Source: Lentisphaerota bacterium
Lineage (GTDB): Bacteria; Verrucomicrobiota; Lentisphaeria; Victivallales; UBA1829
Direction: 5' to 3'
Assembly: GCA_015061565.1 (NCBI GenBank)
Contig: SUWI01000018.1
Span: 1-36,004, forward strand
DNA: 36,004 nucleotides
How positions within the stretch are numbered: the stretch's first letter is position 1; every line of letters starts with the position of its first letter. Shown here one piece after another: positions 2,666 to 34,474 of this stretch. Position numbers and translations under genes: made by a program. Under the pieces are notes generated by a model that worked only from the letters and a program-made list of their open reading frames with translations, was not told where the DNA came from and searched no databases.

Positions 2666-5026
2666 ATGATGAAAAAATTGATGACTTTGCTGATCGTTTC
2701 GGCGGTATCCGCGGCGATGGCCGCGTCTTTTACCGTGGATCCGGAAAACGCCCTGATCGTGGTGGCTCCCAAAGCCGGAGCGGTTTCCCGTCTGGCGGCG
2801 GCTGAACTTCAATACTATCTTCAGCTGATGACCGGCAAAAAGATCGCCGTCGCCTCCAAGGCGGCACCGGACAAATATATTTTCCTCTTTGAAAAACCGG
2901 CCGGGATCAAGCTGAAGCCCGAGGAAGCGGTCTGGGAAACCACGGAAAAGATGACCCGTTTTTACGGGGACTCCTCCCCGGTCCATCCGCGTGCCAATGC
3001 ACTTGCCATTTTCCTTCGCGCTCCGCGGACCGGCGATCTGACCGCGGTCTATGACTTCCTCGAGCGTCAGCTCAAATTCCGCTTTCTCGCACCCGGCGAA
3101 CTGGGGACGGGTTATGTTCCCGCCGGGACGCTCAAGCTGGAAACCGGGGAGAACCGCTGGGCGCCGGGTCAGCTGATCAAGCGGGAGATCCGCAGCGGCA
3201 ACGGGAATGCCAAAGCGGCAGCGAACAACCTGACACTGCCGGAATTTTACCGCAGGAAAGCGCCGACGGATATTCCGAAACGCAATCTGGATACGCTCCG
3301 CTGGCTGAAGCAGCAGCGCATGGGTTCGAGCGTCCATTTCACTTACGGACATGCCTTCACCAGGTGGTGGAAACTCTACGGGGCCGAACATCCGGAGTAT
3401 TTTGCCCTTCACAAGGGAAAGCGCGCCCCCTGGGGCAATCCGGCCAACATCAAAATGTGCCCGTCCTGCAGCGGCCTGATCGACCAGATCGTCAGCAACT
3501 GGAAAAACGCCAAGGTCCGCTCTTCCATGATCAACGTGTGTGAAAACGACTGGGGAAATTACTGCGAATGTGAGGGATGCCGCAAGCTGGACGCCCCGGT
3601 CCGTCCGGGCGAAAAATGGGACACCGACCTGACCGACCGTTATCTCTGGATGGCCAACGAAGTCATCCGGCGGGCGCGTAAGATCGACCCCGAGGTGAAA
3701 GTCGGCTTCTATGCCTACAGCGTCTACCGCTTCCCGCCCCGGAAATTCCGCGTGGAGCCGGGCATCGTCATCGGTTTTGTTCCCGGCATGACGAGCTGGC
3801 AGAAGACCGACGAGATGTATAAGGAATGGCGCAAAATGGGCGCGGACATGATGTTCCAGCGTCCCAACGACCAGCATATCAACACCGGGCTTCCCATGGG
3901 GATCGAAGAGATCATGTTCAAACACTTCCAGATCGGATACCGGAACGGCATGATCGGCACGGACTACGATATGCTCCACGGCTTCTGGCCGGCGACCGGG
4001 ATCGCCGATTACATTCTCGCCCGTGCCCATATTTATCCGGAACGGAGTTTCGAAGAACACGTCGACGAATATTGTTCGGCATACGGAGACGCAGCTCCCG
4101 AGGTCAAGGAGTATTATGCATACTGGCGCAATGAAGTCTTCGATAAACGCCTCTATCCGAACCGGAAGAAAATCGAGGAAAAAGGACGTTACGGCAACTT
4201 CCGGCGCGGGCTGATGTGGGATCTGCCCAAATATTATTTCGAAAAGGATTTCGATCTCACGGACGCCATGCTGCAGAAGGGGCTGCAGAAAAATCTCAAC
4301 CGCCGGGAAAAGGAACTGCTGGAACAGCTGATCCTGGCGAACCGGCACGCCCGGCTGACCTATTCTGCGCTTGCAGCCTCCGGCGATGCCAAATTTGCGG
4401 CGGCCAGGCCCCTGCATCAGTTCCGGCAGGAGAACTGGGACAAGATCAACATGAACTGGTACCGGCTTTTCAGCATTGAGGCGGCATTCGGAGATGTGAC
4501 CGGAGGCAAGCTCTCCGCCGCCCTGGAACAGTTTGCCGACGGCAAAGCCCTCACCCTCCGCTGGTATTTCAAACCCGATCCCAAAGATGAAGGGGACAAG
4601 ATGAACTGGAAGGATACCCCGTTCACCTCAGCGGAAAAGGAATGGCACAAGGTCTATGTCAACTCCGGCTGGGAAAACCCCGGAAATTACGCCGATCCGG
4701 CCATGCGCAGTTTCATGAAAAATTACGACGGCACCGGCTGGTATGCACTGCGCCTCAATATTCCGAAGAAATGGCAGGGCAAAAAAATCTTTCTGCACTT
4801 CGGTGCTGTCGATGAATCCGCCTGGATCTACCTCAACGGAAAATTCTGCGGCGAACGTGTCAGCAAAGATCCCGATGACTGGAAGAAATCTTTTTCGATC
4901 CGGATCGACCAGAATATCAACTGGCAGCAAAAATACCAGTCGCTCGTGGTCAAGGTGCGGGACATCGGCGGACAAGGCGGCATCTGGCAGCCGGTGGCAC
5001 TGGGATGCAAGGAAAAAGAGGAATGA
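2666..5026 (+). CDS. Exported DUF4838-type putative glycoside hydrolase with C-terminal sugar-binding domain
   Basis: Probably acts outside the cytoplasm on a carbohydrate; the activity of the DUF4838 family is unknown to me. The N-terminus (MKKLMTLLIVSAVSAAMA) is a signal peptide. GGAGG at 2656-2660 is five bases from the first ATG and eight from the second (2669), so the second may be the true start. Residues about 25-150 resemble the alpha-glucuronidase-like N-terminal domain found before many GH barrels. Residues about 180-480 are the DUF4838 core, with HPEYFALHKG and a Cys cluster (C300, C302, C305) in NYCECEGC. About 690-786 is a GH2-type jelly-roll sugar-binding module (HFGAVDESAWIYLNGKFCGE). 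It follows a LacI gene and precedes a pseudopilin gene. Confidence 0.82.
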   Translation: MMKKLMTLLIVSAVSAAMAASFTVDPENALIVVAPKAGAVSRLAAAELQYYLQLMTGKKIAVASKAAPDKYIFLFEKPAGIKLKPEEAVWETTEKMTRFYGDSSPVHPRANALAIFLRAPRTGDLTAVYDFLERQLKFRFLAPGELGTGYVPAGTLKLETGENRWAPGQLIKREIRSGNGNAKAAANNLTLPEFYRRKAPTDIPKRNLDTLRWLKQQRMGSSVHFTYGHAFTRWWKLYGAEHPEYFALHKGKRAPWGNPANIKMCPSCSGLIDQIVSNWKNAKVRSSMINVCENDWGNYCECEGCRKLDAPVRPGEKWDTDLTDRYLWMANEVIRRARKIDPEVKVGFYAYSVYRFPPRKFRVEPGIVIGFVPGMTSWQKTDEMYKEWRKMGADMMFQRPNDQHINTGLPMGIEEIMFKHFQIGYRNGMIGTDYDMLHGFWPATGIADYILARAHIYPERSFEEHVDEYCSAYGDAAPEVKEYYAYWRNEVFDKRLYPNRKKIEEKGRYGNFRRGLMWDLPKYYFEKDFDLTDAMLQKGLQKNLNRREKELLEQLILANRHARLTYSALAASGDAKFAAARPLHQFRQENWDKINMNWYRLFSIEAAFGDVTGGKLSAALEQFADGKALTLRWYFKPDPKDEGDKMNWKDTPFTSAEKEWHKVYVNSGWENPGNYADPAMRSFMKNYDGTGWYALRLNIPKKWQGKKIFLHFGAVDESAWIYLNGKFCGERVSKDPDDWKKSFSIRIDQNINWQQKYQSLVVKVRDIGGQGGIWQPVALGCKEKEE

Positions 5027-5229: not shown

Positions 5230-5970
5230 ATGAACATTATTTCATCATTCATCTCCATGTCCTCCGCAGCACGAAGAGCGGAGGAGGATCACCTTTCATC
5301 ACCCCGGCGAAAGCGGAGCTTTACGCTCATAGAGCTTCTGGTGGTGATCGCGATCATTGCGATCCTGGCCTCGCTGCTGCTGCCGGCGCTGAAGCAGGCG
5401 CGGAACAATGCCCGCGCCATCAGCTGTGTGAATCTTTTCGGACAGTTCGGCAAATGCACCGTGCAGTATGTCGATGACAATCAGGGATTCCTGATGCCCT
5501 ACATGAATTACGGCACTGCCGGTTCCTGGAGTTCCACCACCAAGATGGCGATGGGATGCGAACCGGCCCGGTGGCTCTTCACCCCCTATATGCAGCCGCG
5601 GGGATCGAGCTCAATCGGTCTGCTGAGAAGGAATCAGACGAAACGTCCCAGTATTGACTGTCCAGCCCGGGAATTCGATCCTTCGACCAGCGGCGATACC
5701 GAATTTATTTTCGGAATCAATTATTCCATTGCAGGAACCAATGCCCCGCCGAAAACCACCCGCTGCCAGAGACCTTCCGCAACCTCCATTCTGGCGGAGT
5801 GCCATTCCACAGCCGCCGCCCAGTACGGGCTGGGGGCCGCAAGAACGATCTGGTTCGTCCAGCATCAGAACCGGGCAAGCGTTGCTTACATCGACGGTCA
5901 TGCCGGTCTGCTCAGACGCGAACAGCACCCGGCGATCGATACCTTCCCATTCTATAAGGTCCGCCCGTAA
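5230..5970 (+). CDS. Prepilin-type N-terminal methylation domain protein (pseudopilin-like, DUF1559-like)
   Basis: A short secreted or membrane-anchored protein with a type IV pilin/type II secretion pseudopilin N-terminus: [17 protein letters not shown], with the conserved Glu at +5 (E35). The residue before the cleavage position is Ser30, not the usual Gly. A 30-residue basic, Ser/Arg-rich extension precedes the motif, longer than the few residues of standard prepilins. The C-terminal half is globular and ends in [13 protein letters not shown], the aspartate-glycine-histidine ending common in this lineage's paralogues. GAAAGG at 5214-5220 supports the ATG at 5230. It follows the DUF4838 gene by 203 bases and is probably in the same sugar-responsive unit. 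A role as a substrate-specific surface component is only an inference. Confidence 0.85.
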
Positions 5971-6031: not shown

Positions 6032-7516
6032 TCAGTATATCTGATGCGGATGATGGCCCGGATCGACCTGATACTGCGCGAATCCGGTCTTTTCGTATTC
6101 GGAAACCTTCATATCCCAGCCGATCTGGCGGACATGATGCGCTATACTCAGACGGAAACCCAAAGCATCGGTGCAAATGACCGCCGGATTCCAGGCGGAA
6201 CAGGCGGCATGTCCGAAGATATTGAGGAACTTCGTGTCATGGGAAACATGCCAGGTAGTTTCGAGCATGCCGAAGAGTTTTTCCTTCGCCGCCATTTTGC
6301 CGAGACTGACCGTGCCGCCGGTATTGAGCCAGGGACAGACCAGCACGCTGAATTTCTCATTTTTGAAAAATTTCGTGGTCGGCCATTCAGGTTCGGGATC
6401 TTCATCCTTCGCTTTGTATCCGTACTGCCAGTCGGCGATCACGATATCGCGGGGAAGTTCCTTGTAAAGACTGCTCAGTTTATGTTTGGGAAGACCGCAG
6501 ACGATATATCCCTTCCAGCGGGGATCGCCCTTTTCCAGCAGCATATCATGCCACATGATGATCCGTGCGCCTTTCTTCCGGAACAGGTCGTGGAAATACA
6601 GGATATGATCGCGGACCAGGTCCTTGAGCACATGGTGGCGGCAGTCGCGGCAGGTCCCGATATTGTCCGCTTCATCGCAGCCGATATGGAAGAACGGCGG
6701 ACGGTCGTAGAATTCATACAGCTCAAGCACCAGATCGGTCAGGATGCGCCGGACATTCGGATTGCTGACGCACCAGGTCCAGCCTTCCGGTTCGAACAGC
6801 GGCTGCAGCTCCGGATGATAATCCAGAATGGCGTGTTTGCCGGTGACCGAACGGGAGGCAGCGGCGTGTCCGAGCAGGTTGAACTGCGGGACCAGCGTGA
6901 TTCCGAGTTCCTTGCCGAGACGGATCAGACGCTTGAGTTCCTTTTTGTCGATCCAGCGGTCCGCCCAGCAGAATTCAGGGTGGGATTCGAACGGAAACAC
7001 GCCCCAGGTCTCGATCACCGCGTAATTGAATTTGTGATATGCGGCGAGCCGGATCTGTTTTTCGATATCCCAGAGCGGAGTTTCCGGAAACACGCAGAGA
7101 TGAATGCCGCGGAATTCCATCGCCGGTTCGTCGCCGATCTCGCATTGGACCAGGAAATATCCGGTGAGTTTTTCCGTGCCGCGGTCAGGCTCCGCCAGCT
7201 GGCGAAGCGTTTTCATCGCGTTCATCAGTCCGGCGGCTGTTGCGGCAGAAATCTCCAGTTCGAATCCGGTCACTTTGATCCGGTAAGCCTCGGAGGAAAG
7301 TTTTTTGGCCGCGGAACTTTCCTTCACGGTAATCCCGGGGACAATCTGCCAGTAAGACTTGAACAGAGCGGCGGCCGTTTTGCGGACCGCGGCGGGACCG
7401 CACAGGACCACGGAACAGCCCTTCCGGAGCTGATACACGGGTCCGTCCTTGAATTTGACTTTCTTCGGGACCGGGATCAGCCGGTCGGTCAGGATTCTGG
7501 TTTCTTCGGCATTCAT
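6032..7516 (-). CDS. GH20-type beta-N-acetylhexosaminidase-like protein
   Basis: Probably removes terminal beta-N-acetylhexosamine (GlcNAc/GalNAc) in the cytoplasm, as no signal peptide is visible. The start was set at the ATG at 7516 (MNAEETRILT); the frame is open further upstream but that part overlaps the end of the preceding gene and is not protein-like. Residues about 10-120 form the GH20b-like N-domain (LIPVPKKVKF, then GFELEISAATAAGLMNAMKT). The barrel starts at about 133 (MEFRGIHLCVF). HIGCDEAD contains the Asp281-Glu282 pair that in GH20 orients the acetamido group and acts as acid/base. A CRDC Cys pair follows shortly after. Length 494 aa. It is the last gene of the minus-strand amino-sugar operon, 14 bases after the oxidoreductase gene. 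Confidence 0.8.
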   Translation of the reverse strand: MNAEETRILTDRLIPVPKKVKFKDGPVYQLRKGCSVVLCGPAAVRKTAAALFKSYWQIVPGITVKESSAAKKLSSEAYRIKVTGFELEISAATAAGLMNAMKTLRQLAEPDRGTEKLTGYFLVQCEIGDEPAMEFRGIHLCVFPETPLWDIEKQIRLAAYHKFNYAVIETWGVFPFESHPEFCWADRWIDKKELKRLIRLGKELGITLVPQFNLLGHAAASRSVTGKHAILDYHPELQPLFEPEGWTWCVSNPNVRRILTDLVLELYEFYDRPPFFHIGCDEADNIGTCRDCRHHVLKDLVRDHILYFHDLFRKKGARIIMWHDMLLEKGDPRWKGYIVCGLPKHKLSSLYKELPRDIVIADWQYGYKAKDEDPEPEWPTTKFFKNEKFSVLVCPWLNTGGTVSLGKMAAKEKLFGMLETTWHVSHDTKFLNIFGHAACSAWNPAVICTDALGFRLSIAHHVRQIGWDMKVSEYEKTGFAQYQVDPGHHPHQIY

Positions 7517-7530
7517 CGTGGTGTTATCTT

Positions 7531-8607
7531 TCAGATCTTCGCGGGGACGCCGGACTCGACGCTGGTGTAGCAGGCGTTCATGCAAGCGATGGTCTGGCGG
7601 TGCCATTTCAGGTTGATCTTCGGCTGCTTGTGATTGCGGATGCAGTCCACGAATTCGTCGATCAGACCGACCCATTCATCGAAATAAGTGTATTGGACCG
7701 TGTAGCGGTCGTTCGGCGCGCCGTTGTGATAGACGTTCGGGCCGAAGCAGTCGCACTGGATCATGCCTTTTTCGCCGGTGATGGTGAGGTTGACTTCCAT
7801 GCGTTTGGGGAAGACTTCCCAGCCGGGAGCGGGCACTTTGAGCCGTTCTTCCAGACGGGACCAGGAGGGGTCGAAGAGGAATGCGGTGCCGTCTTTGAGC
7901 TTGCCGGCCGCCATGATCATGTCTTCGACTTCCAGTTCTTTCCGGAGATTCGGTGCGACTTGCGCGAAAACCGTGTCGTAATCGGAGCCGGTCAGCCAGC
8001 GGATCAGATCGAAAATGTGCGGATGGTCGCAGAGCGCGCCGCCGCGGAAACGCTTGTCGCCCGGAGCCAGCGGAACACGTTTGCCGTAACTGGCTTCCGG
8101 ACTGCCCTGCCACGGGAAGGCCCAGACCGGCGACAGCGTGATGTTGGTCGCCTGGATCGAAAGCAGTTTTCCGAGTTTCCCGGAAGCGATTTCCTGCTGC
8201 AGCCGTTTCACCACCGGATTGTAGTGCATTTCCAGTTCAATCTGACAAACGATTCCGGCCTTGTCAACCATTTCGATCATCTTGTCATATTCGTCCATGT
8301 CGAAAGTCGGAATTTTCATGGACAGGATATGGATTCCGCGTTCGGCGCAGAATTTCATCTCTTCGAAATGCTTTTCGTTGGCGGACGCCAGCACGATGGC
8401 TTCGATATCGGGATGTTCGGCAAGCATCTTTTCGGGATCAAGGTAGCAGGGAACGCCGGTTTTGTAGAGTTCATAAACTTCCTTGGCACGCTCGTCGGCG
8501 GCGCAGGAGGCGACCCAGTCGAGCTTCCGGTTCTCGATCAGGGTCTGGTAATATTTGCGGGTATGGCCGTGGGTCATGCCCATCATGGCGATTTTCACAG
8601 GTTTCAT
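7531..8607 (-). CDS. Gfo/Idh/MocA-family NAD(P)-dependent oxidoreductase
   Basis: Cytoplasmic oxidoreductase likely acting on a sugar or sugar derivative released by the glycosidases of the operon; some members of this superfamily are instead NAD-dependent glycosidases. The Rossmann fold is at about 1-120, with the dinucleotide loop written GMTHGH. The usual EKP motif is MKIP with Lys98 kept. The C-terminal domain has GGALCDHPHIFDLIRWL, giving Asp194 and His197 as the usual active-site pair. Length 358 aa. The ATG at 8607 (MKPVKIAMMG) was chosen because GGAG lies just upstream and because an earlier ATG would overlap the previous gene. Spacing is 13 bases from the gene before and 14 from the GH20 gene. 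Confidence 0.88.
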   Translation of the reverse strand: MKPVKIAMMGMTHGHTRKYYQTLIENRKLDWVASCAADERAKEVYELYKTGVPCYLDPEKMLAEHPDIEAIVLASANEKHFEEMKFCAERGIHILSMKIPTFDMDEYDKMIEMVDKAGIVCQIELEMHYNPVVKRLQQEIASGKLGKLLSIQATNITLSPVWAFPWQGSPEASYGKRVPLAPGDKRFRGGALCDHPHIFDLIRWLTGSDYDTVFAQVAPNLRKELEVEDMIMAAGKLKDGTAFLFDPSWSRLEERLKVPAPGWEVFPKRMEVNLTITGEKGMIQCDCFGPNVYHNGAPNDRYTVQYTYFDEWVGLIDEFVDCIRNHKQPKINLKWHRQTIACMNACYTSVESGVPAKI

Positions 8608-8620
8608 TTCGGTCTCCGGT

Positions 8621-9331
8621 TCACAGCGTGACAGGTTTATTATCGGCATCGGACTTCACGATCGCCGCGGCGTATTTTTCCATATCGGCGGCAGCCTGGT
8701 TCCAGACGGGGCCCAGCTCGGCTTTCATCAGCACGGCGAAGGCGGCACGAACGATCCAGATCTGATCGTTGGGCAGACCGAACAGTTCGGTATCCACATC
8801 GGTGAAAGTGGTCAAACCTTTGTCGGTCCATTCGTAGATGGAACTCTGCGGGACCTGGGTATCGACCGTGCGGTCGGAGGCCACGCCGCGGCGGGCGATG
8901 ATCTCATGGCGGTCCATGGGATCGGCCCCGGCGGGCAGTTTGGAACCGCATTCGACCGAGGCGCTCATGCCGTTGGCGAAACGGGCCAGGATGTTGCAGG
9001 CGGCATCACCGCTGCGGACGGCGAAAATGCGCCGGATCGGACTGTCCGCCAGATAAGCGGCCAGATCGAGCTCGCGCGCGGCCGTCTTCACCGGATCGCC
9101 TCCGGCTGAAAACGAGGCGAAACGGAAGGTGGAAACATCTTCCAGCGTCTTGCCGTCGATGATTTTCTTGAGTTCGACGAAACGGCGTTCGACCCGCCAG
9201 GGCAGCAGACGGATCTTCTTTCCGTCCGGCAGGACGAGTTCGGGACCGGCGTTTCCGTTGACGATCTCTCCCGCGGGACAACCGTATTTCTCCCGCAGGA
9301 AAGCCAGCGCTTGATTCATTTTTTCCGACAT
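8621..9331 (-). CDS. Uncharacterised protein, weakly like the C-terminal half of Gfo/Idh/MocA oxidoreductases
   Basis: I do not recognise a named family with confidence. The 236-aa protein has no Rossmann dinucleotide loop. Its middle (about 95-170: RRIFAVRSGDAACNILARF, SASVECGSKLP, HEIIARRGVASD) resembles the substrate-side beta-sheet domain of Gfo/Idh/MocA enzymes. No signal peptide or membrane segment is visible. It lies directly before such an oxidoreductase and one base after the SIS gene, so it is tightly co-expressed. It may be a non-catalytic partner or regulatory subunit of that enzyme; this is inference. Confidence 0.7.
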   Translation of the reverse strand: MSEKMNQALAFLREKYGCPAGEIVNGNAGPELVLPDGKKIRLLPWRVERRFVELKKIIDGKTLEDVSTFRFASFSAGGDPVKTAARELDLAAYLADSPIRRIFAVRSGDAACNILARFANGMSASVECGSKLPAGADPMDRHEIIARRGVASDRTVDTQVPQSSIYEWTDKGLTTFTDVDTELFGLPNDQIWIVRAAFAVLMKAELGPVWNQAAADMEKYAAAIVKSDADNKPVTL

Positions 9332-9332
9332 T

Positions 9333-10091
9333 TCACAGACTCTTGATTAAAGGTTTGTATTTTTTGAGGTAAGCGGCATTCTTCTGATCCCCGCCCGGGG
9401 TGTTGGCACTGTTCCAGACCGGCGGCACGATGCCGCGTTCCAGACAGATCCGGCAGCATTCGATCTCGAGCAGATGGGCGATGGTGAAATCGACCACGTT
9501 GGAAACGGGCGCGATCGGGGTGTCCAGTCCGGGCAGGTTCACGATAGCGTCGCCGACCGGATTGTAATCATCGATGCAGACTTCGGCAAAGTCGAACAGG
9601 TTTTTGCCGGAAGAGTGCCGGATGAAATGGTCCGCGGGCATTTCCTTCTGCCAGTATGAGCTGGCGACGGCGATAATCCGTCCGCCGCGTTTTTTGATCT
9701 CCATGGCAGCGTCGATCGTGGCCGGATTGATGCCGATATTGTGGAAGATCAGCACCACATCGTCCTTCTGGATATCATAATACTTGATGATCGAAGCGCC
9801 GAAATTCTCGGTGCGTTCGAGCTCGAGATACTTCAGCGCCTGGTTGAACACGGAAAGCGCGGTCTCCATCAGCGGATTGATGTTGGCCAGACCGCCGGCG
9901 CGGAAGAACATTTCACCCATGGCGAGCGTGGTGTGTCCGCCGCCGGCATAGACGTTGATGAGCTTGTCGTTTTGGATGGCGTCGGCCATCAGTTCGGCGC
10001 CCCGATGGATGTTGTCCGCCTGTTCGGCAGCGACTTTCCGGATATTGGCAACGGCTTTGTCCACATACCCGAAATCATTGAGTTGACTCAT
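9333..10091 (-). CDS. SIS-domain sugar isomerase-like protein (UPF0309 type)
   Basis: Binds phosphosugars; SIS-domain proteins isomerise or regulate aldose/ketose and amino-sugar phosphates. The single SIS domain covers about residues 35-200: NVYAGGGHTTLAMGEMFFRAGG forms the phosphate-binding loop region, VVLIFHNIGINPATIDAAME the second strand-loop, and RIIAVASS the next strand. At 252 aa it has the size of stand-alone UPF0309 proteins. It is cytoplasmic and sits between the GH89-like gene (12-base gap) and the unknown protein (1-base gap). In this context a role in handling an amino-sugar phosphate is plausible but not shown. Confidence 0.85.
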   Translation of the reverse strand: MSQLNDFGYVDKAVANIRKVAAEQADNIHRGAELMADAIQNDKLINVYAGGGHTTLAMGEMFFRAGGLANINPLMETALSVFNQALKYLELERTENFGASIIKYYDIQKDDVVLIFHNIGINPATIDAAMEIKKRGGRIIAVASSYWQKEMPADHFIRHSSGKNLFDFAEVCIDDYNPVGDAIVNLPGLDTPIAPVSNVVDFTIAHLLEIECCRICLERGIVPPVWNSANTPGGDQKNAAYLKKYKPLIKSL

Positions 10092-10103
10092 GGTGATCTC
10101 CTC

Positions 10104-12425
10104 TTATTGACGGTTGATGGAATTGCGTTCGAGAACGTCCGCCAGTTTTTTCAGGTTGGCGGGCAGTTTTTTCATAGCGGCCGCGGGATTCGGCGCGATG
10201 GACTTGAGCGGCGTTTCATAGAACCGGTCGCGGACCGCGGCAAAACGCGGATCGCCCTGGTTCTTCTCCTCATCCATGACGCGTTTGCCGCTTCGTTCGG
10301 CCTCGCGCCAGATCTCGCGGCAGACATCCAGTTCGGGGATATAGATCTGCGTGAAAAGCTCCGTGATATAGCTGCGGCAGTAGCCGTTTTCCGAATTGCC
10401 TTTGAGAGTATATTCGAATTTCGGATTGGTGCGGTGTTTCCGCTGCAGGTCGCAGAGCGAAGCATACAGTGAAAACTCGTCCCACGCGGCCAGGATGTCG
10501 GCGAACAGCACATGCCCGGTCCGGAGTTCATCGAACCGGGTCTCCACCTCGGCGGCATTGTCCTTGCCGGTCTGCCAATCCTGAATGGCGAGCGCAAGCC
10601 GGTCGAAGAGGAAGCTGAGGCCGCGCGACCCCACCGTCCGGATCAGGTCGAAAACGTCGCGCCGGATGAATTCGTCTTCCTTCGCGATATTCAGTTCGGC
10701 GAAACGGCGGAGCAGAGCGGCGCCGGCAGCCTGCACGGGACCGAGGGTCATGAGAGCGTATTGAGCCCGCAGATAAGTTTTTTCCGCATTGAACCGCATC
10801 AGGAAACGCGAGGCCAGGAAAATGACCTTGCCCTGACAGAGGCAGTTTGCCTGGCGGCGGAGACCGGGTCCGTGCCAGTATTCGGCAGTGATCAGCGGCA
10901 GCGCATCGCGCCAGAACGCGAGCATCTGACCGCGTTTCTCCTCGCTGTAGCGGGCGGCGCAGAACCGTTCGATGAAAGATCCGATCTCCCGGTTGCCTTT
11001 TTCCGGATCCCAGCTGTTGGCGGCGCAGAATTCGATCATCAGCGTGTCGGCATGGGAATTTTCCGGCCACAGGATGAAGCCCCGGCACATGGGATCACCG
11101 GCCGCAGTCCGGAGCCGCCGGGCGATGACCTCGTAATTGCCGCGCGGTTCCGTGTCCGGTTCGAAGGACTGGAAGACGCCGAAGACCCACGGGAATTTGC
11201 CGATCACGCCCCAGTTCAGGAAATTCCGCGATTCGTCGTCGTTGTCGGACGTGTAATCGAAGATGACCGTGCGGTCGGGATCGAGCTCGTTGAGCAGTTC
11301 CCGGACCTCTTCCGGCTCCCAATACATGCAGAAATCCCAGCTGGCGATCAGCAGCGGCGCGTTCGGATAATGCTCGCGCAGTTTCTTCTGGATCCGCCGG
11401 TAGGTGTAAAGCTTCATCTGCTGATTGGATTCGCGGTCGCTGTAGCAGCGGCGTTCCGCCAGGCCGATGGTATGGAAAATGTCCGGCGAACCGTATTCGC
11501 GGATGTGCGCCTCGGTCAGTTTCCAGTAGGCCTCCAGATTTTTCTCCTGCCGGATGTCCCAGACCAAGCCACTTTTTTCGCTGTAGCCGCCGGTGGCCTG
11601 CGGCATGAAATCCGGTTTCACCTTGTCCAGATATTCATGCGGAGTGCGGCTGTACCAGTGGGTCATGGTGCCGATGTCCTCGGGATGGAGCAGATCGCGT
11701 TCGCGGGCGTAGGCCAGCACTTTTTTCCGCAGTTCGCCGCGGTATTTCAGGCTCCAGAACAGCGTATGGTCGTCATACGAACGCGGCGTGGAATTGTCGA
11801 TCTCATAGCCTTCCGGATACGAAACGATGTCCGGAAACGCTTTCTGGAACAGGTCGTCGATGCCGATCCGCAGCATGAAAAGATTCATGCGTTTTTTCAG
11901 GATCCAGTCGATCTCGCGTTTCCATTCGGCGAAATCCCAGTGTTCCGCCTGGAACCGGGTCAGGCTCCGGTGGGCGAAATAGCGCAGTCCGCGATACTGG
12001 AACCGGGGCGATTCCACCACATCCAGTCCGGTGATGTCGATCTTCTTCGCCCTGGGGATCCGGTCGCCGTCCCAGAAATAACGGCAGCCGGCCCGGAGTT
12101 CGAAGAACCGGTAAACCGCATACAGCATCGCGCGGGGACGTCCGCCCGCCAGGAACAGCAGATTCCGTCCGGCATCGGATGCCGAACGCAGCTGGTAGGT
12201 ATCCGTGCCGGAGGGTGCGGCAAACTGAGGAATGACTTTTTCCACGATCTTGGCGTGTGAAAAGGAGTTGAACGCATCCGAACCGATCACGACCAGGTCG
12301 CTCTTCGGATCGTCTTTGGCGGTCACTTCGAGTTTTCTGCCCGTGATCTGCTGCCACATGGAGGCGAATTCCGCTGCCGCAAGCGGGCAGATGCCCTGCT
12401 TTTCGGTGATCAGGATCTTCAGCAT
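10104..12425 (-). CDS. GH89-like alpha-N-acetylglucosaminidase, cytoplasmic
   Basis: Family members (human NAGLU, clostridial GH89) cut terminal alpha-linked GlcNAc, as in heparan sulphate or mucin O-glycans. Residues about 1-135 are the N-terminal alpha/beta domain. At about 140-185 comes RYFAHRSLTRFQAEHWDF, EWKREIDWILKKRMN, the family's W-x-E-IDW signature. MTHWYS (254-259) and IGLAERRC follow, then FILWPENSHAD. Glu324 and Glu455 are candidate catalytic residues; their 131-residue distance matches that of the two active-site glutamates of human NAGLU (316 and 446, from memory). The rest is the helical C-terminal domain. No signal peptide is present, unlike secreted family members, so the substrate must be imported. 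A paralogue of similar layout lies at 32051. Confidence 0.78.
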   Translation of the reverse strand: MLKILITEKQGICPLAAAEFASMWQQITGRKLEVTAKDDPKSDLVVIGSDAFNSFSHAKIVEKVIPQFAAPSGTDTYQLRSASDAGRNLLFLAGGRPRAMLYAVYRFFELRAGCRYFWDGDRIPRAKKIDITGLDVVESPRFQYRGLRYFAHRSLTRFQAEHWDFAEWKREIDWILKKRMNLFMLRIGIDDLFQKAFPDIVSYPEGYEIDNSTPRSYDDHTLFWSLKYRGELRKKVLAYARERDLLHPEDIGTMTHWYSRTPHEYLDKVKPDFMPQATGGYSEKSGLVWDIRQEKNLEAYWKLTEAHIREYGSPDIFHTIGLAERRCYSDRESNQQMKLYTYRRIQKKLREHYPNAPLLIASWDFCMYWEPEEVRELLNELDPDRTVIFDYTSDNDDESRNFLNWGVIGKFPWVFGVFQSFEPDTEPRGNYEVIARRLRTAAGDPMCRGFILWPENSHADTLMIEFCAANSWDPEKGNREIGSFIERFCAARYSEEKRGQMLAFWRDALPLITAEYWHGPGLRRQANCLCQGKVIFLASRFLMRFNAEKTYLRAQYALMTLGPVQAAGAALLRRFAELNIAKEDEFIRRDVFDLIRTVGSRGLSFLFDRLALAIQDWQTGKDNAAEVETRFDELRTGHVLFADILAAWDEFSLYASLCDLQRKHRTNPKFEYTLKGNSENGYCRSYITELFTQIYIPELDVCREIWREAERSGKRVMDEEKNQGDPRFAAVRDRFYETPLKSIAPNPAAAMKKLPANLKKLADVLERNSINRQ

Positions 12426-12441
12426 GATTCCGCTCCCGGTT

Positions 12442-13473
12442 TTACTTTTTCAGCAAACGTTTATAGTTTTCGCCGATGGTGTCCCAGAGTTTCAGTGCAT
12501 CGGGCGCGCCGACCACGGTGCCGTAGCCGCCGCGGTAAGTCCACGCGGCAATGCGGTCCACGCCCGCCTGTTCGGCAATATCCGCCCAGCGGGCCACCTG
12601 CGACCAGTCTTTCGGCTGTTTGTAGTAGCCCATCAGCCAGCGTTCGGATTTCTTGCCGTATTTCTTCGCGACCGCCACGGTCCGTTCGGTGATGTCGCGG
12701 AAGAAATCTTCCGGCAGCGCCCAGTTCACGATCGTGGTGGAAAAAACGTCGAAATACGGACAGGACGCCACCATGTCCCAGTTGTCGTAGCCGCGGTATT
12801 CGGACACGTAATAGCCGTTCTGCGTGGCGTGGACGCAGCAGGTGATCTCCAGCTTCGGATCGATCTCCTTGAGCGCCTTGGAGGTCTCCGTAAGCACCAC
12901 CAGCGCCTCGCGCCAGCGGAACTGTTTGACGTCATTGGTCATATAGCGCGGCATGGCATAGCCGTAATAATCCTCGAACCGTTTGCGGCAGACCGGGCAA
13001 TAGCAGGTCCAGTCGTCGGCCACACCACCGGTGATCGAGGCGATGCCTTTCGGGAACGCGTAATGCGGCTCGTCCCAGAAGAAACCGTCCGGCTTGCATT
13101 CGCGCGCCAGCGTGGTGCAGAAATTGCGGAAATAATCGCGGTAGCTGTTCGTGTTGAAACAGGCATAAGGCAGTTTCTCGCCGGTCAGCGCGGAAACCTG
13201 ACGGTTTTCCACATTGTCCTGCAGGAATTTGGAGACCTGTTCGCCGCCGAAATATTTACCGTTGCCCCAGGGATCGATGAGCACGCGCAGTCCCATTTCA
13301 TGCGCTTTGTCCACGATTTTCGGGATGTTCGGACGCCAGAAATCGAAATCGAATTCCGTGACCGCCAGGATGACCGTGGTGCAGCCGTGCGCCAGCATTT
13401 CCGCGAAATCCTTTTCCGCATGTTCCACATAGTTCAGTCCGTAATAACTGATCGAGGTTTGGGTGATCGCCAT
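12442..13473 (-). CDS. Putative TIM-barrel glycoside hydrolase of unknown specificity
   Basis: A 343-aa protein without signal peptide whose sequence reads as a single (beta/alpha)8 barrel: VILAVTEFDFDFW (strand 2), MGLRVLIDPWGNG (strand 3), GFFWDEPHY with Asp134-Glu135 (strand 4, place of a catalytic acid), LEITCCVHAT (strand 5) and DRIAAWTYRGGYG (last strand). A Cys cluster CYCPVCRKRF (C157, C159, C162) follows strand 4 and may bind metal; similar clusters occur in DUF4838 proteins. It is the second gene of the operon, 16 bases from both neighbours. A sugar-cleaving role is inferred from fold and context only. Confidence 0.72.
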   Translation of the reverse strand: MAITQTSISYYGLNYVEHAEKDFAEMLAHGCTTVILAVTEFDFDFWRPNIPKIVDKAHEMGLRVLIDPWGNGKYFGGEQVSKFLQDNVENRQVSALTGEKLPYACFNTNSYRDYFRNFCTTLARECKPDGFFWDEPHYAFPKGIASITGGVADDWTCYCPVCRKRFEDYYGYAMPRYMTNDVKQFRWREALVVLTETSKALKEIDPKLEITCCVHATQNGYYVSEYRGYDNWDMVASCPYFDVFSTTIVNWALPEDFFRDITERTVAVAKKYGKKSERWLMGYYKQPKDWSQVARWADIAEQAGVDRIAAWTYRGGYGTVVGAPDALKLWDTIGENYKRLLKK

Positions 13474-13489
13474 TGTTTTTCCCTTTCTG

Positions 13490-14557
13490 TTATTTGAGTT
13501 GAGTGCTTTGTCTCACAATGAGTTTCGAGTCCAGATAACGGCAGACGCCGTCCGAAACGGATCCGAATTTGATCCGGGTGTAGAGCGATTCGAACGCCAG
13601 CCGGGCCATGTCCTGCACCGGATACGACACGCTGGTCAGCGGGGGGAAGGTCTCCGCCGCCGCGGGCAGATCGTCGAATCCGGCCACCGCCACCTCCTGC
13701 GGAATGCGCAAGCCGAGCTGATGACACAATCCGATCGCCCGGATCGCGAACAGATCATGGTAGCAGAAGAGTCCCAGCGTGCCGGAACGTTTCTTTTTCA
13801 GCAGGCGGGAAATGGTCTTCCGGCATTCGTCCGGGTTCTGGCTGTCCACCCGCAGGATGTTGGCTTCCGGCAGGGTGATCCCCGCCGCCGCCAGTTCCGC
13901 CCGGAATCCGAAAAGACGCTGGTCGTGCACTTTGCCGTTCTGTCCGATATACGCGAAATCCCGGATCCCCTGCTCCAGCAGATGGCGGGCAGTCTTCTGC
14001 GCGGCTTTCTGGTTGTTGACCAGGACCGCATCGCAGTCGGTGCTTTCCAGTTTCCGCCCCAGCATCACATACGGCACCGGCAGCTGCGAATAGAACGCTT
14101 CCTGTTCGGGCGTCGACGCCCAGGGGCAGATCAGGATGCCCGCCACGCCCTGACGGCAGAACATCCTGAGCCGTTCGCATTCGGTTTCAAAATCGTAGTT
14201 GCTCGAGGCAATGATCAGGCTCGCGCCGATGGAATGTGCGAATTCCTCCGCATGGCCCGCCAGCTTGGCAAAGTAAGGACTTTCCAGACAGGTCGCCAGA
14301 AATCCGATCAGCAGCGGCTTTTCCGTCTTGCCCGCCGGTGCAAAAACCGACGCCAGACGGTAATCCCGGCCGACTTTTTCCAGAATGCCGTCCTCCCGCA
14401 GCCTCGTCAGAATATGGAAAGCGGTTTTCAGGGACACCTGCTTGCATTCGCAGATTTCCCGCGTGGTCAGAAAACGGCCGCCGCTTCCGCCGAATTCCCC
14501 GGCGGCGATCCCGTTTTTCAGTTCCTCAACGATCCGCTCCGTTTTCGTCTTCCGCAT
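13490..14557 (-). CDS. GntR-type/LacI-type chimeric transcriptional regulator of the amino-sugar operon
   Basis: A one-component sugar regulator with a GntR-like winged helix at about residues 3-70 (ATG to LTTREICECKQVSLKTAFHI, wing GRDYRL) joined to a LacI-type periplasmic-binding-like domain at about 80-350 (GFLATCLESPYFAKLAGHAEE; AGFDDLPAAAETFPPLTSV). This is the architecture of AraR-type repressors. At 355 aa it has normal length. It is the first gene of the minus-strand operon, 16 bases before the TIM-barrel gene. Three TGTTATA copies (TATAACA in its own direction) lie within 50 bases upstream and are candidate binding sites. The inducer is unknown; an amino sugar or a fragment of the target glycan is a reasonable guess. 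Confidence 0.9.
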   Translation of the reverse strand: MRKTKTERIVEELKNGIAAGEFGGSGGRFLTTREICECKQVSLKTAFHILTRLREDGILEKVGRDYRLASVFAPAGKTEKPLLIGFLATCLESPYFAKLAGHAEEFAHSIGASLIIASSNYDFETECERLRMFCRQGVAGILICPWASTPEQEAFYSQLPVPYVMLGRKLESTDCDAVLVNNQKAAQKTARHLLEQGIRDFAYIGQNGKVHDQRLFGFRAELAAAGITLPEANILRVDSQNPDECRKTISRLLKKKRSGTLGLFCYHDLFAIRAIGLCHQLGLRIPQEVAVAGFDDLPAAAETFPPLTSVSYPVQDMARLAFESLYTRIKFGSVSDGVCRYLDSKLIVRQSTQLK

Positions 14558-14561
14558 TTTC

Positions 14562-14602
14562 TGTTATACTTTTTGTTATACCAATTATTTCATTTTGTTA
14601 TA
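14562..14602 (-). promoter_or_regulatory. Three TATAACA direct repeats upstream of the amino-sugar operon
   Basis: On the minus strand TATAACA ends at 14562, 14574 and 14596 (plus strand TGTTATA at 14562-14568, 14574-14580, 14596-14602). Spacings of 12 and 22 bases keep them roughly on one face of the helix. They lie 5-45 bases before the start codon of the regulator and probably overlap the promoter; no convincing -35/-10 pair could be assigned. Confidence 0.45.
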
Positions 14603-14831
14603 ACTTTACTGCAACAAAACGAAAAATCAAGCGGGTTTTTCAAAAAAAAGATATTTTTTGTAGTTTTATTATGGTATCGGTCGCAATGGGGCACTGCCCT
14701 GGGAAACGCCTGATCGCGCGAGGGTGTGGGGGAGTAAACGTTCCGGGAATATCAGGAGTAACGGAAATCGCTTCCTTTCCCCTGCGGGAGCGGAGCGGAA
14801 GAGCAATCTCCGGCAGCCGGAAAATTTGCAG

Positions 14832-14950: not shown

Positions 14951-15799
14951 ATGTTCAAGACGATGTTAACGGCTGCCGGCAGTCTGCTGCTGGCAGGTTC
15001 GCTCGCGGCGCAGGTCGCAGTCAAATCCGGCGACAGGATCGCTTTCCTCGGCGATTCGATCACTGCGCAGGGCAACAGTTCTCAGGCAGGTTATGTCAAT
15101 CTGGTGATGCTCGGACTCAAAGTCAACGGGATCGCCGCGGTGAAGATTCCCGCCGGCATCAGCGGGCATAAATCCAATCAGATGCTTGCCCGGCTGAAAC
15201 GGGATGTGCTGGATAAAAAACCGCAGATCATGACGCTCAGCTGCGGAGTGAACGACGTCGGGCACGGCAAGCGCGGCGTGGAACTGCCGGATTTCAAGAA
15301 AAACATCACGGCGATCGTCGAACAGGCGCAGGCAGCGGGGATCCGGGTCTGCATCCTGACCGCAACCATGAACCGGGAAGATCCGAAACATCCGCACAAT
15401 ATCAAACTGGCGGGTTACAACGACTTTCTGCGCAGCCTCGCCAAAGAGAAAAATTGTCTGCTGGCCGACCTGAACAGCGACATGCAGAAAATCGTTGCCG
15501 ATTTCAGGAAGTCCAGTCCGAAATACCAAGGCAATGTGCTCACCGTCGACGGGCTGCACATGAATCCGGACGGCAACGTGATGATGGCCAGAGGCGTGCT
15601 CCGCGCGCTGGGATTGGACGACGCTCAGATCGCCAAAGCCGAGGCGGCCTGGGATAATCAGAAAAGCGGCATTGGAACGGTCCAGCTCTCCGTCAGGGAT
15701 TTCCGCCTGCTCCGCAGTCAGGCGGCAGCAGCGGGTCTGACAATCCAGGAATATATCACCCGACTGGTCAACCGTGAAGCGGAAAGGATGGCAAAATGA
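14951..15799 (+). CDS. Exported SGNH/GDSL hydrolase
   Basis: Serine esterase of the SGNH superfamily; members remove acyl groups from carbohydrates or lipids. The signal peptide is at residues 1-20 (MFKTMLTAAGSLLLAGSLAA). Block I is FLGDSITAQG with Ser36, block II the Gly of GISGHKSN, block III GVND with Asn101, and block V DGLHMN with Asp200 and His203. All catalytic and oxyanion positions are therefore present. The last 50 residues, beyond the domain, are helical and charged. AAAGGA lies just before the ATG at 14951. Its stop overlaps the start of dgoD by four bases (ATGA), indicating translational coupling. The substrate is unknown; deacetylation of a galactose-containing glycan would fit. 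Confidence 0.88.
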   Translation: MFKTMLTAAGSLLLAGSLAAQVAVKSGDRIAFLGDSITAQGNSSQAGYVNLVMLGLKVNGIAAVKIPAGISGHKSNQMLARLKRDVLDKKPQIMTLSCGVNDVGHGKRGVELPDFKKNITAIVEQAQAAGIRVCILTATMNREDPKHPHNIKLAGYNDFLRSLAKEKNCLLADLNSDMQKIVADFRKSSPKYQGNVLTVDGLHMNPDGNVMMARGVLRALGLDDAQIAKAEAAWDNQKSGIGTVQLSVRDFRLLRSQAAAAGLTIQEYITRLVNREAERMAK

Positions 15800-16944
15800 A
15801 AATCGTATCGCTGGAACTGTTCAAAGTCGCCCCCCGCTGGCTTTTCCTTAAAACCACGGCCGATGACGGCACCGTCGGCTGGGGCGAACCCGTGATCGAG
15901 GGACGCGCCGACACCGTTGCCGCGGCTGTCAAAGAACTTTCCCCCTATGTGATCGGACGCGACCCGGCTCATATCGAAGACCTGTTCCAGGTGATGTACC
16001 GGGCAGGATTCTACCGCGGCGGACCGGTGCTGACCAGCGCTATCTCGGGCATCGAACAATCCCTGTGGGACATCCGCGGCAAATCGCTCGGACTGCCGGT
16101 TTACGATATCCTCGGCGGACCCGTGCGCGAAAAAATCCAGGTTTACTGCTGGATCGGCGGGGACCGTCCGGACGATACCGCCGCCGCGGCAAAGGAAAAA
16201 GCTTCGCAGGGCTACCATGCAGTCAAGATGAACGGCACCGCAGAACTGGATTATATCGACACCTGGGCGAAAGTCGAGGCTGCGGTCGGCCGCGTGGCGG
16301 CGATCCGGGATGCGCTGGGCAAGGATTTCGGCATCGCAGTCGATTTCCACGGCCGGGTGCATCAGGCCATGGCCCGCGTGCTGATGAAGGAACTGGAACC
16401 GTATCACCTGATGTTCATCGAGGAACCCGTGCTGATCGAAAACCTCGAAGCTTTCGCGGAACTGCGGCGTCACACTTCCACACCGCTGGCGACCGGCGAA
16501 CGCAATTTCACCCGCTGGGGCTTCAAAGAGATCCTGACCCGCGGGGTGGCGGACATCATCCAGCCCGACCTGTGCCATGCCGGCGGCATTCTGGAAGTGC
16601 GGAAGATCGCGGCGATGGCGGAAACTTTCGACGTCGCGGTGGCGCCGCATTGTCCGCTGGGACCGATCGCGTTTGCCGCCAGTCTGCAGCTGGATTACGG
16701 CACGCCGAACGCGGTGATCCAGGAACAGAGCCTCGGCATCCATTACAATCAGGGCGCCGATCTGCTGGATTATCTGGTTGACCGCACCGTCTTCGATTAT
16801 AAAGACGGCAGTGTTTACCGCAACGCCCGGCCCGGCCTGGGGATCGAAATCAACGAAGCCAAGGTCAAAGAAGCGGCGGCAAAGGGCCACGAATGGAAAA
16901 ATCCCGTCTGGCGCACCGCCGACGGCGTGGTCGCGGAGTGGTGA
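15796..16944 (+). CDS. dgoD: D-galactonate dehydratase (enolase superfamily)
   Basis: Converts D-galactonate to 2-dehydro-3-deoxy-D-galactonate, the second step of the De Ley-Doudoroff galactose route, in the cytoplasm. It is 382 aa, the same length as E. coli DgoD as I remember it, and collinear with it: PRWLFLKTTADDGTVGWGEPVIEGRA at the capping domain and MYRAGFYRGGP near 67-77. Metal ligands Asp183, Glu209 and Glu235 and catalytic His185 and His285 fall at exactly the E. coli positions (AVDFHGR, FIEEP, ATGER, APHCPLGP). The C-terminal tail ends NPVWRTADGVVAEW as in the family. The ATG overlaps the esterase stop. No galactose dehydrogenase, KDGal kinase or aldolase is in the window. Confidence 0.92.
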   Translation: MKIVSLELFKVAPRWLFLKTTADDGTVGWGEPVIEGRADTVAAAVKELSPYVIGRDPAHIEDLFQVMYRAGFYRGGPVLTSAISGIEQSLWDIRGKSLGLPVYDILGGPVREKIQVYCWIGGDRPDDTAAAAKEKASQGYHAVKMNGTAELDYIDTWAKVEAAVGRVAAIRDALGKDFGIAVDFHGRVHQAMARVLMKELEPYHLMFIEEPVLIENLEAFAELRRHTSTPLATGERNFTRWGFKEILTRGVADIIQPDLCHAGGILEVRKIAAMAETFDVAVAPHCPLGPIAFAASLQLDYGTPNAVIQEQSLGIHYNQGADLLDYLVDRTVFDYKDGSVYRNARPGLGIEINEAKVKEAAAKGHEWKNPVWRTADGVVAEW

Positions 16945-21063: not shown

Positions 21064-21738
21064 ATGAAAACATGTAAACCTTTTACACTCATCGAGCTGC
21101 TGGTAGTTATCGCCATCATCGCCATTTTGGCGGGAATGCTGCTGCCGGCACTGAACAAAGCCAGGGAAAAAGCACGCGCGATCACCTGCATCAACAACCT
21201 GAAACAATTGGGTCAGGCCAGTCTTATCTATGCGGATGACAATGCAGGACGGCCGTTCGTCTACAACAACAATCTGGGACCAGGCAGGGGCACGTGGAAA
21301 TATATGCTTCTCACATACACCAGGCTGGTACGGAACAACGGCACTTTCGTATGCCCCAGCGATACCAATCTGGATCATCGCAAGACGTATCAGCAAGGGG
21401 ACACTAGCTTTATCCAGGCCAGCTACAACTTGCACAGCGGCATCAGCAGCACTCCGATCGGGAGAGTGTTCCAGCCGGGAAGAAAAATTTTCTTCCTTGA
21501 GCGAGGAGAATATGCGGGGGCTGACGCCTGGTATTCCGCATCTGCCGGCGGAGGCGTAACAGGAAGCAGCGCAGGAGACAAAAAATACAACTTCAGGAAT
21601 GCTCCCCTGATGGGCTGGCGTCATGGAAAACGGGAAATGAATATGGCTTTTATTGACGGACATGCCGCGCCGAACAACGAGTATCACACTTTCGCCATCA
21701 ACCACATGAAGCCATACCTGTCACGGGAGAAATTATGA
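21064..21738 (+). CDS. Prepilin-type N-terminal methylation domain protein (pseudopilin-like)
   Basis: A 224-aa protein with [18 protein letters not shown] at residues 5-22. The conserved Glu is at +5 of the mature form and the residue before the predicted cleavage is Pro6 rather than Gly. Here the leader is short and basic (MKTCKP), unlike the 30-residue leader of the paralogue at 5230. The ectodomain has [16 protein letters not shown] after the helix and [14 protein letters not shown] near the C-terminus. At DNA level the shared N-terminal motif is diverged between the two copies, so they are not a recent duplication. GGAAGG lies upstream of the ATG. Its stop overlaps the next gene's start (ATGA), so it is a true member of this sugar operon. 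Confidence 0.88.
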
Positions 21739-34416: not shown

Positions 34417-34450
34417 GTTGTCTTATGCAGGCAGGAAGAGTTGTATCGAG
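34417..34450 (+). promoter_or_regulatory. Candidate operator before the GntR gene
   Basis: GTTGTC at 34417 and GTTGTA at 34440 are 23 bp apart, the same spacing as at 31971/31994 and 35846/35869. AAATCC precedes the first half-site, as it precedes the second one at 31994. There is no -35 between them here, so the site may act on read-through transcription or on a promoter I cannot see. Confidence 0.5.
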
Positions 34451-34474
34451 GAATATTCAACAGGGAGTTCGATC

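What the first reader, a model, noticed from the sequence alone, without database searches (positions are those of the whole stretch)
6032..14557. Seven-gene intracellular operon for an N-acetylhexosamine-containing glycan
One regulator plus GH89-like (alpha-GlcNAc), GH20-like (beta-HexNAc), an unknown TIM-barrel protein, SIS, a Gfo/Idh/MocA oxidoreductase and a Rossmann-less relative are spaced by only 1-16 bases. None of the enzymes has a signal peptide. The set does not match any catabolic operon I know: there is no NagA or NagB, and oxidation through the Gfo/Idh/MocA enzyme may replace the usual kinase route. Possible substrates are mucin O-glycan or glycosaminoglycan fragments.
Basis: partly seen in the sequence, partly recalled or inferred. 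Interest (0 to 1): 0.62.

Follow-up and report, generated by a model that had tools for sequence, protein, structure and literature searches.

The report
Conserved intracellular amino-sugar breakdown gene cassette
These seven genes are a local version of a four-gene core that recurs in gut Verrucomicrobiota and Clostridia, usually beside enzymes that clip off N-acetylated sugars, and its parts suggest a way of handling the freed sugar that differs from the textbook phosphorylate-first route.

Summary
The operon is real: seven minus-strand genes, spaced 1-16 bp, at 6032-14557. The GH89-like and GH20-like calls hold (Pfam above cut-off; GH20 Asp-Glu pair and GH89 nucleophile Glu conserved). It is one edition of a recurring cassette whose core is an unnamed TIM-barrel protein, a UPF0309 SIS protein, a Rossmann-less Gfo/Idh/MocA tail protein and a full Gfo enzyme. 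A GTDB scan gave 358 TIM relatives; the best 80 (Lentisphaeria, Kiritimatiellae, Clostridia, unnamed MAGs) were examined. TIM, SIS and Gfo are very conserved; the glycosidases vary but are mostly N-acetylhexosaminidase families (GH20, GH89, GH123). The cassette SIS proteins keep the catalytic residues of GlcNAc-6P dehydratase NagS but have lost its phosphate-binding serines, which predicts an unphosphorylated substrate. Kiritimatiellae GH20s carry signal-peptide-like starts, often beside a sugar porter, so the core probably acts on imported monosaccharide. "No NagA/NagB" holds only inside the operon: both exist elsewhere in the genome. "Oxidation replaces the kinase" is unproven, since sister cassettes also carry a PfkB kinase and a phosphate-type SIS. 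Best reading: a HexNAc catabolic cassette with early steps on unphosphorylated sugar; the exact reactions are unknown.

The parts
13490..14557 (-). Transcriptional regulator: GntR-like winged helix (weak) plus LacI/PurR-type sensor domain; first gene of the operon
   Evidence: PF13377 1.6e-28, PF00392 0.054; a homologue precedes TIM in 28 of 91 related loci
14558..14607 (.). Possible operator/leader: copies of TATAACA(A/G) just upstream of the regulator start
   Evidence: TATAACAAAAWG twice in the window vs 0.10 expected; repeats; function inferred only
12442..13473 (-). TIM: 343-aa TIM-barrel protein, core gene, no named family; D134-E135 at the end of strand beta4, no conserved Glu after beta7
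   Evidence: No Pfam/NCBIfam family; AlphaFold pLDDT 78.7, pTM 0.85; Foldseek best hits GH42 beta-galactosidases, E 2e-11; 71-97% identical in the best 80 GTDB loci
10104..12425 (-). GH89-like (NAGLU) glycosidase, no signal peptide, predicted alpha-N-acetylglucosaminidase type
   Evidence: PF05089 2.8e-17; E455 aligns with the catalytic Glu of 4xwh (E446 in human numbering, from own knowledge), and its paralogue's Glu with the one that is Gln in 4a4a; E324 and E455 invariant in 13 homologues
9333..10091 (-). SIS1: UPF0309/NF002805 SIS-domain protein, core gene; NagS catalytic residues kept, phosphate-binding serines lost
   Evidence: NF002805 225 bits; PDB 3cvj and NagS 9eol; residue counts
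8621..9331 (-). Rossmann-less Gfo/Idh/MocA C-terminal-domain protein, predicted partner of the Gfo enzyme
   Evidence: AlphaFold pLDDT 90.4; Foldseek to Gfo/Idh/MocA dehydrogenases from E 1.8e-10; immediately upstream of the close Gfo type in 42 of 45 loci, two of the other three by profile hit in an overlapping frame
7531..8607 (-). Gfo/Idh/MocA NAD(P)-dependent dehydrogenase, core gene (ATG 8607)
   Evidence: PF01408, PF22725, PF02894 above cut-off; K98, D194, H195 and H197 invariant in 45 sequences
6032..7516 (-). GH20-like glycosidase, no signal peptide (ATG 7516), predicted beta-N-acetylhexosaminidase type
   Evidence: PF02838 2.2e-11, PF00728 1.6e-9; D281-E282 pair conserved in 40 sequences and aligned with PDB 8bal

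Best explanation
A regulated operon for catabolism of N-acetylhexosamine (HexNAc) residues, built from a widespread four-gene core (TIM, SIS1, Rossmann-less protein, Gfo) to which each lineage attaches the exo-N-acetylhexosaminidases suited to its glycans. In this organism GH20-like and GH89-like enzymes work in the cytoplasm and release beta- and alpha-linked HexNAc from short imported oligosaccharides (inferred from family, catalytic residues and lack of signal peptides). The freed, unphosphorylated HexNAc is then handled by the core: SIS1 does C2-proton chemistry (isomerisation or C3 dehydration, as in the NagS/MurQ branch) in a pocket that no longer binds phosphate (residue loss shown; substrate inferred); the Gfo enzyme, probably as a heteromer with the Rossmann-less protein, oxidises a ring hydroxyl with NAD(P) (fold and Lys/Asp/His shown; position and partner inferred); the TIM protein, a glycosidase-fold enzyme with an Asp-Glu pair, acts on the same small metabolite (inferred from its extreme conservation and constant pairing with SIS1). 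Products reach central metabolism through steps encoded elsewhere, which may include NagA/NagB and kinases.
For: Operon anatomy. HexNAc theme: GH20 in 39, GH89 in 17 and the GH123 group in 7 of 91 cassette loci, against 13 GH20 and 3 GH89 in the whole 5.45-Mb genome; alphaproteobacterial SIS relatives beside NagA-like and NagB-like genes with ABC sugar transporters. Core conservation: TIM 71-97%, SIS1 68-92%, close Gfo type 64-94% versus Rossmann-less 35-77% and GHs 27-70%; fourfold sites of TIM nearly randomised at 90% or more amino-acid identity, i.e. strong purifying selection. SIS1: H53, R64, E94, D179, N228 equivalents kept; S54->Thr (69/69), S119->His, S121->Ile/Tyr, whereas SIS2 beside the kinase keeps the serines. 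Free monosaccharide as core substrate: 18 of 42 cassette GH20s, essentially the Kiritimatiellae ones, have signal-peptide-like starts, about half with a sugar-porter MFS gene in the operon, while SIS1, Gfo and Rossmann-less proteins never do. Dehydrogenase pair: Rossmann-less gene almost always directly upstream of Gfo; a diverged Rossmann-less/Gfo pair replaces it in other cassettes.
Against: No substrate or activity is measured. Some TIM loci carry no HexNAc-type GH; haloarchaeal TIM relatives (about 30%) sit partly with other sugar genes (four-carbon acid sugar kinase, class II aldolase, xylose dehydrogenase), though one set has a PIG-L deacetylase and a Rid protein. SIS proteins at 26-36% identity to NagS did not dehydrate GlcNAc-6P (PMC12680351), so SIS1's reaction may differ; and single serine mutants of NagS kept activity in vivo, so serine loss is not proof of a new substrate. 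The acid/base Glu of the GH89-like enzyme is not proven by alignment. Related loci are not independent, so counts overstate the evidence.
Confidence: 0.5

Rival explanations
1. The core runs a 3-keto-glycoside route: Gfo (with its partner) oxidises C3 of an intact HexNAc glycoside, and SIS1 and/or TIM break the bond by elimination and hydration, so GH20/GH89 are helpers.
For: Gfo shows weak NCBIfam similarity to disaccharide/glycoside 3-dehydrogenases, levoglucosan dehydrogenase and UDP-GlcNAc 3-dehydrogenase and PDB similarity to DgpA; C3 oxidation followed by elimination is known for C-/O-glycosides (PMC8563793, PMC10628242).
Against: The DUF1080 hydrolase or AP-endonuclease-type lyase of the known routes is not part of the core; Kiritimatiellae appear to place the hydrolases outside the cytoplasm with a sugar porter.
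Confidence: 0.17
2. Conventional HexNAc scavenging: GH20 and GH89 release GlcNAc/GalNAc, which is phosphorylated and sent to NagA/NagB; TIM, SIS1 and Gfo only process a side sugar or a repair product.
For: nagA and nagB are in the genome; sister cassettes have a PfkB kinase and a phosphate-type SIS2; the genome also has a phosphate-type SIS beside an FGGY kinase at contig C261.
Against: TIM, SIS1 and Gfo are the most conserved genes and stay when the GHs change, which is unlike side enzymes; no kinase in this operon.
Confidence: 0.17
3. The cassette degrades a different or rarer sugar, and the GH20/GH89-like enzymes are divergent members with other specificities.
For: The GH89-like match is distant and covers the catalytic barrel only; haloarchaeal TIM contexts include other sugar-acid genes; galactonate dehydratase genes lie beside the operon here and in L067.
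Against: Three unrelated HexNAc-specific families (GH20, GH89, GH123) converge on the same core.
Confidence: 0.16

Closest known systems
Classical GlcNAc catabolism (kinase or PTS, then NagA, NagB)
   Same: HexNAc as likely substrate; nagA and nagB present elsewhere in this genome
   Different: No kinase, NagA or NagB in the operon; core is TIM-SIS1-Rossmann-less-Gfo
NagS (UPF0309/NF002805), GlcNAc-6P dehydratase of Streptomyces (PMC12680351; PDB 9eol)
   Same: Same NF002805 family; catalytic residues H53, R64, E94, D179, N228 conserved
   Different: Phosphate-binding S54/S119/S121 replaced by Thr/His/Ile; encoded with Gfo and TIM; dehydratase activity untested
Marine ong cluster for oxidised GlcNAc (GlcNAc1A) (PMC9537276)
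   Same: HexNAc derivative handled before phosphorylation; beta-hexosaminidase in the cluster
   Different: Uses OngB deacetylase, PLP deaminase OngC, Rid protein and KdgK; none is in this operon
Gfo/Idh/MocA 3-keto-glycoside pathways (DgpABC; BT2157-BT2160 type)
   Same: Gfo/Idh/MocA oxidation of a sugar hydroxyl coupled to other sugar enzymes; heteromeric enzymes are known there
   Different: No DUF1080 hydrolase or AP-endonuclease-like lyase in the core; the small partner here is a Gfo tail, not the beta-sandwich subunit
GH89 and GH20 glycosidase families
   Same: Catalytic motifs and Pfam domains
   Different: Distant members, predicted cytoplasmic, embedded in the cassette

Membership tests
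GH20 (beta-N-acetylhexosaminidase) | Catalytic domain over the Pfam cut-off with the Asp-Glu pair | tested here: met
   PF00728 38 bits vs 22.3; D281-E282 in HIGCDE conserved in 40 homologues, aligned with 8bal
GH20 (beta-N-acetylhexosaminidase) | Hydrolysis of beta-HexNAc | not testable with these tools
   Needs an enzyme assay
GH89 (alpha-N-acetylglucosaminidase) | NAGLU barrel and nucleophile Glu | tested here: met
   PF05089 63 bits vs 25.5; E455 aligned to the 4xwh catalytic Glu, paralogue aligned to the 4a4a E->Q site
GH89 (alpha-N-acetylglucosaminidase) | Acid/base Glu | tested here: inconclusive
   E324 invariant at a fitting spacing, but the HMMER alignments do not cover it
NagS GlcNAc-6P dehydratase | Catalytic residues H53, R64, E94, D179, N228 | tested here: met
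   Invariant in 69 cassette SIS proteins
NagS GlcNAc-6P dehydratase | Phosphate-binding S54, S119, S121 | tested here: not met
   Thr, His, Ile/Tyr; not filed as NagS
Gfo/Idh/MocA dehydrogenase (7531-8607) | Rossmann NAD domain, C-terminal domain and Lys/Asp/His catalytic residues | tested here: met
   PF01408, PF22725, PF02894; K98, D194, H197 invariant
Gfo/Idh/MocA dehydrogenase (8621-9331) | Rossmann NAD domain | tested here: not met
   Only the C-terminal fold is present
Classical nag operon | NagA and NagB in the operon | tested here: not met
   Absent from the operon; present at C340 and C291
Clan GH-A retaining glycosidase (for TIM) | Acid/base Glu after beta4 and nucleophile Glu after beta7 | tested here: not met
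   E135 follows beta4; no conserved Glu after the beta7 strand 275-279; loops partly of low model confidence

The most novel reading that the evidence does not exclude
The TIM-SIS1-Rossmann-less-Gfo core is an undescribed pathway that begins HexNAc breakdown on the unphosphorylated sugar, using a two-subunit Gfo dehydrogenase, a SIS enzyme that has lost its phosphate pocket, and a new TIM-barrel enzyme family, spread across Verrucomicrobiota and Clostridia of animal guts.
Probability: 0.35. Interest if true: 0.75.

Novelty: new variant of a known kind. Interest (0 to 1): 0.56.

Why it matters
If right, a large group of poorly cultured gut bacteria (Victivallales, Kiritimatiellae, some Clostridia) degrades host or dietary amino-sugar glycans through a route that standard annotation misses. 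The TIM protein is an unnamed, almost invariant enzyme family; the SIS protein makes a direct prediction (unphosphorylated substrate); and the Rossmann-less partner suggests a two-subunit form of a very large dehydrogenase family. Each is a single-enzyme test.

Tried and rejected
Kinase-free by necessity: rejected, because sister cassettes carry PfkB and a phosphate-type SIS2. Missing nagA/nagB: rejected. TIM as an ordinary clan GH-A glycosidase: not kept, no nucleophile Glu. High TIM identity explained only by very recent transfer: rejected, fourfold sites are 23-60% identical while protein identity is 71-97%; transfer is still likely, since BipA is only about 52% identical or has no close match in genomes where TIM is 90% or more identical. 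A PDB profile search for TIM gave only chance hits. Literature: no paper naming UPF0309 and nothing describing this gene set; one paper on an alternative glycan pathway (recalled DOI) is not held. Promoter/terminator scan at chance level. A Pfam scan of 63 other neighbours showed no further constant partner.
Full report
WHAT IS THERE. Seven minus-strand genes occupy 6032-14557. With sensible starts (Gfo ATG 8607, GH20-like ATG 7516) the gaps are 16, 16, 12, 1, 13 and 14 bp. Order: regulator, TIM, GH89-like, SIS, Rossmann-less Gfo relative, Gfo, GH20-like. Downstream, 61 bp away, a convergent pilin-like gene ends at 5970; upstream, a divergent GDSL-galactonate dehydratase pair begins at 14951. 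The window lies in a 5.45-Mb, 396-contig assembly estimated 85.6% complete; its closest cassette relatives are Lentisphaeria/Victivallales MAGs.

THE GLYCOSIDASES. The GH20-like protein passes PF02838 and PF00728 and keeps the catalytic Asp-Glu (HIGCDE), conserved in 40 relatives and aligned with solved hexosaminidases. The GH89-like protein passes PF05089; its WPExSH Glu (455) aligns with the catalytic Glu of human NAGLU (4xwh), and the window's second GH89-like protein aligns there with the position that is Gln in the 4a4a structure. The genome has 13 GH20 and 3 GH89 matches, so finding both in one 8.5-kb operon is not chance.

THE CASSETTE. Searching 289 genomes of the phylum found the TIM protein in 42. 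A GTDB-wide pattern scan found 358 relatives; the best 80 (titles: Lentisphaeria, Victivallales, Kiritimatiellae, Verrucomicrobia, Clostridia, Oscillospiraceae or 'uncultured bacterium' MAGs, many from animal guts) were taken with flanks. Gene-order analysis shows in 91 loci: SIS1 67, Gfo 54, Rossmann-less 39 by gene call, GH20 39, regulator homologue 28, GH89 17, GH123 group 7, PfkB 13, sugar-porter MFS 13, second SIS (SIS2) 13. Many loci are cut by contig ends, so these are lower bounds; family names for PfkB, MFS and GH123 rest on representatives. A profile search finds the Rossmann-less family in 48 of 93 loci; it lies directly upstream of the close Gfo type in 42 of 45, and two of the other three have it in an overlapping frame. 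A diverged protein (k13) beside a diverged Gfo is the same Rossmann-less family (hhalign E 3.4e-7). The two most distant bacterial TIM loci retain only TIM-SIS (L078, L079). Haloarchaeal plasmids hold TIM relatives at about 30% identity, one set beside a PIG-L deacetylase, Rid protein, glucose 1-dehydrogenase and an enolase-superfamily enzyme, others beside Gfo enzymes and sugar-acid genes.

CONSTRAINT. TIM is 71-97% identical across these loci, SIS1 68-92% and the close Gfo type 64-94%, while Rossmann-less, regulators and glycosidases are far more diverged. At fourfold-degenerate sites TIM genes with 90% or more protein identity share only 41-56% of bases, so the protein is held by strong selection. 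In same-class genomes BipA is about 52% identical, and in several same-phylum genomes no close BipA match is found, so lateral transfer has probably also happened.

SIS1. It belongs to NF002805, with NagS (9eol) and 3cvj as nearest solved sequences. The NagS paper (PMC12680351) reports H53, R64, E94 and D179 as essential, N228 and S91 as important, and S54, S119 and S121 as phosphate contacts whose single mutants still function in vivo. Cassette SIS1 keeps the H53, R64, E94, D179 and N228 equivalents in all sequences, but S54 is Thr, S119 is His and S121 is Ile or Tyr. SIS2, next to a ribokinase-like PfkB gene in Kiritimatiellae and Clostridia, keeps the serines. The contrast inside one operon supports different phosphorylation states for the two substrates; it does not prove it.

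GFO PAIR AND TIM. The 236-aa protein is modelled at pLDDT 90.4 as a Gfo C-terminal domain without a Rossmann fold. The full Gfo keeps Lys/Asp/His and shows weak similarity to 3-dehydrogenase families and DgpA. TIM (pLDDT 78.7, some active-site loops poorly modelled) is a clan GH-A-like barrel with D134-E135 after beta4 and no Glu after beta7. The adjacent Asp-Glu resembles substrate-assisted N-acetylhexosaminidases (established for GH20; the comparison is mine), but a non-hydrolytic role is equally possible.

WHERE THE CHEMISTRY HAPPENS. In the window and its Victivallales and Clostridia relatives the GHs lack signal-peptide-like starts; 18 of 42 cassette GH20s, essentially the Kiritimatiellae ones, have them, often with a sugar-porter MFS gene (a hydrophobicity heuristic, not SignalP). 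SIS1, Gfo and Rossmann-less proteins never do (the few TIM hits were not checked individually; over-long gene starts are the likely cause). So the shared intracellular substrate is probably the released monosaccharide.

NagA and NagB exist at C340 and C291; the genome also has a phosphate-type SIS next to an FGGY kinase at C261. Replacement of a kinase route is therefore unproven. Mucin or glycosaminoglycan as the source is plausible (Victivallales with GH20 and GH89 are listed among mucin-GH carriers in PMC9120202) but open.

VERDICT. A real and recurrent HexNAc-linked cassette with an apparently undescribed core. Best explanation 0.5; three rivals share the rest. Shown: gene content, residues, folds, conservation and co-occurrence. 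Inferred: substrate identity, oxidised carbon, subunit pairing and the TIM reaction.

Noticed in passing
window 32051-34405 (+) and 34418-35563 (+): A second GH89-like gene (PF05089 2.2e-19, 41% identical to the first) followed 12 bp later by a GntR/LacI-type regulator; two of the genome's three NAGLU matches are in this window.
   Followed up: partly
window 2666-5026 (+) and 22737-25052 (+): Two DUF4838 proteins, one with a GH67 N-terminal-like domain; related genes also occur in a few cassettes.
   Followed up: no
window 14951-16944 (+): GDSL hydrolase overlapping a galactonate dehydratase (NF010624 631 bits vs 311), divergent from the operon; a homologous dehydratase follows the cassette in L067.
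   Followed up: partly
window 5230-5970 and 21064-21738: Prepilin-like proteins with an N-methylation motif; a cluster of 22 such genes recurs near cassettes in related genomes.
   Followed up: no
L165, L166, L167 (alphaproteobacterial plasmids): SIS relatives (32-38%) lacking two of the phosphate serines sit between a NagB/6-phosphogluconolactonase-like gene, a NagA-like amidohydrolase, a ceramidase-like protein and an ABC sugar transporter: another possible non-phosphorylated amino-sugar route.
   Followed up: partly
L083, L084 (haloarchaeal plasmids): TIM relative next to PIG-L deacetylase, Rid, class V aminotransferase, glucose 1-dehydrogenase and an enolase-superfamily enzyme: looks like oxidative amino-sugar breakdown in archaea.
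   Followed up: no
L177 1471-3639 (own genome contig C261): Phosphate-type SIS (STSGKN) directly before an FGGY-like sugar kinase.
   Followed up: partly
L176 1477-2235 (own genome contig C255): Third UPF0309-type SIS protein with an altered phosphate loop (LVNFYGLN), beside a creatininase-like gene.
   Followed up: no
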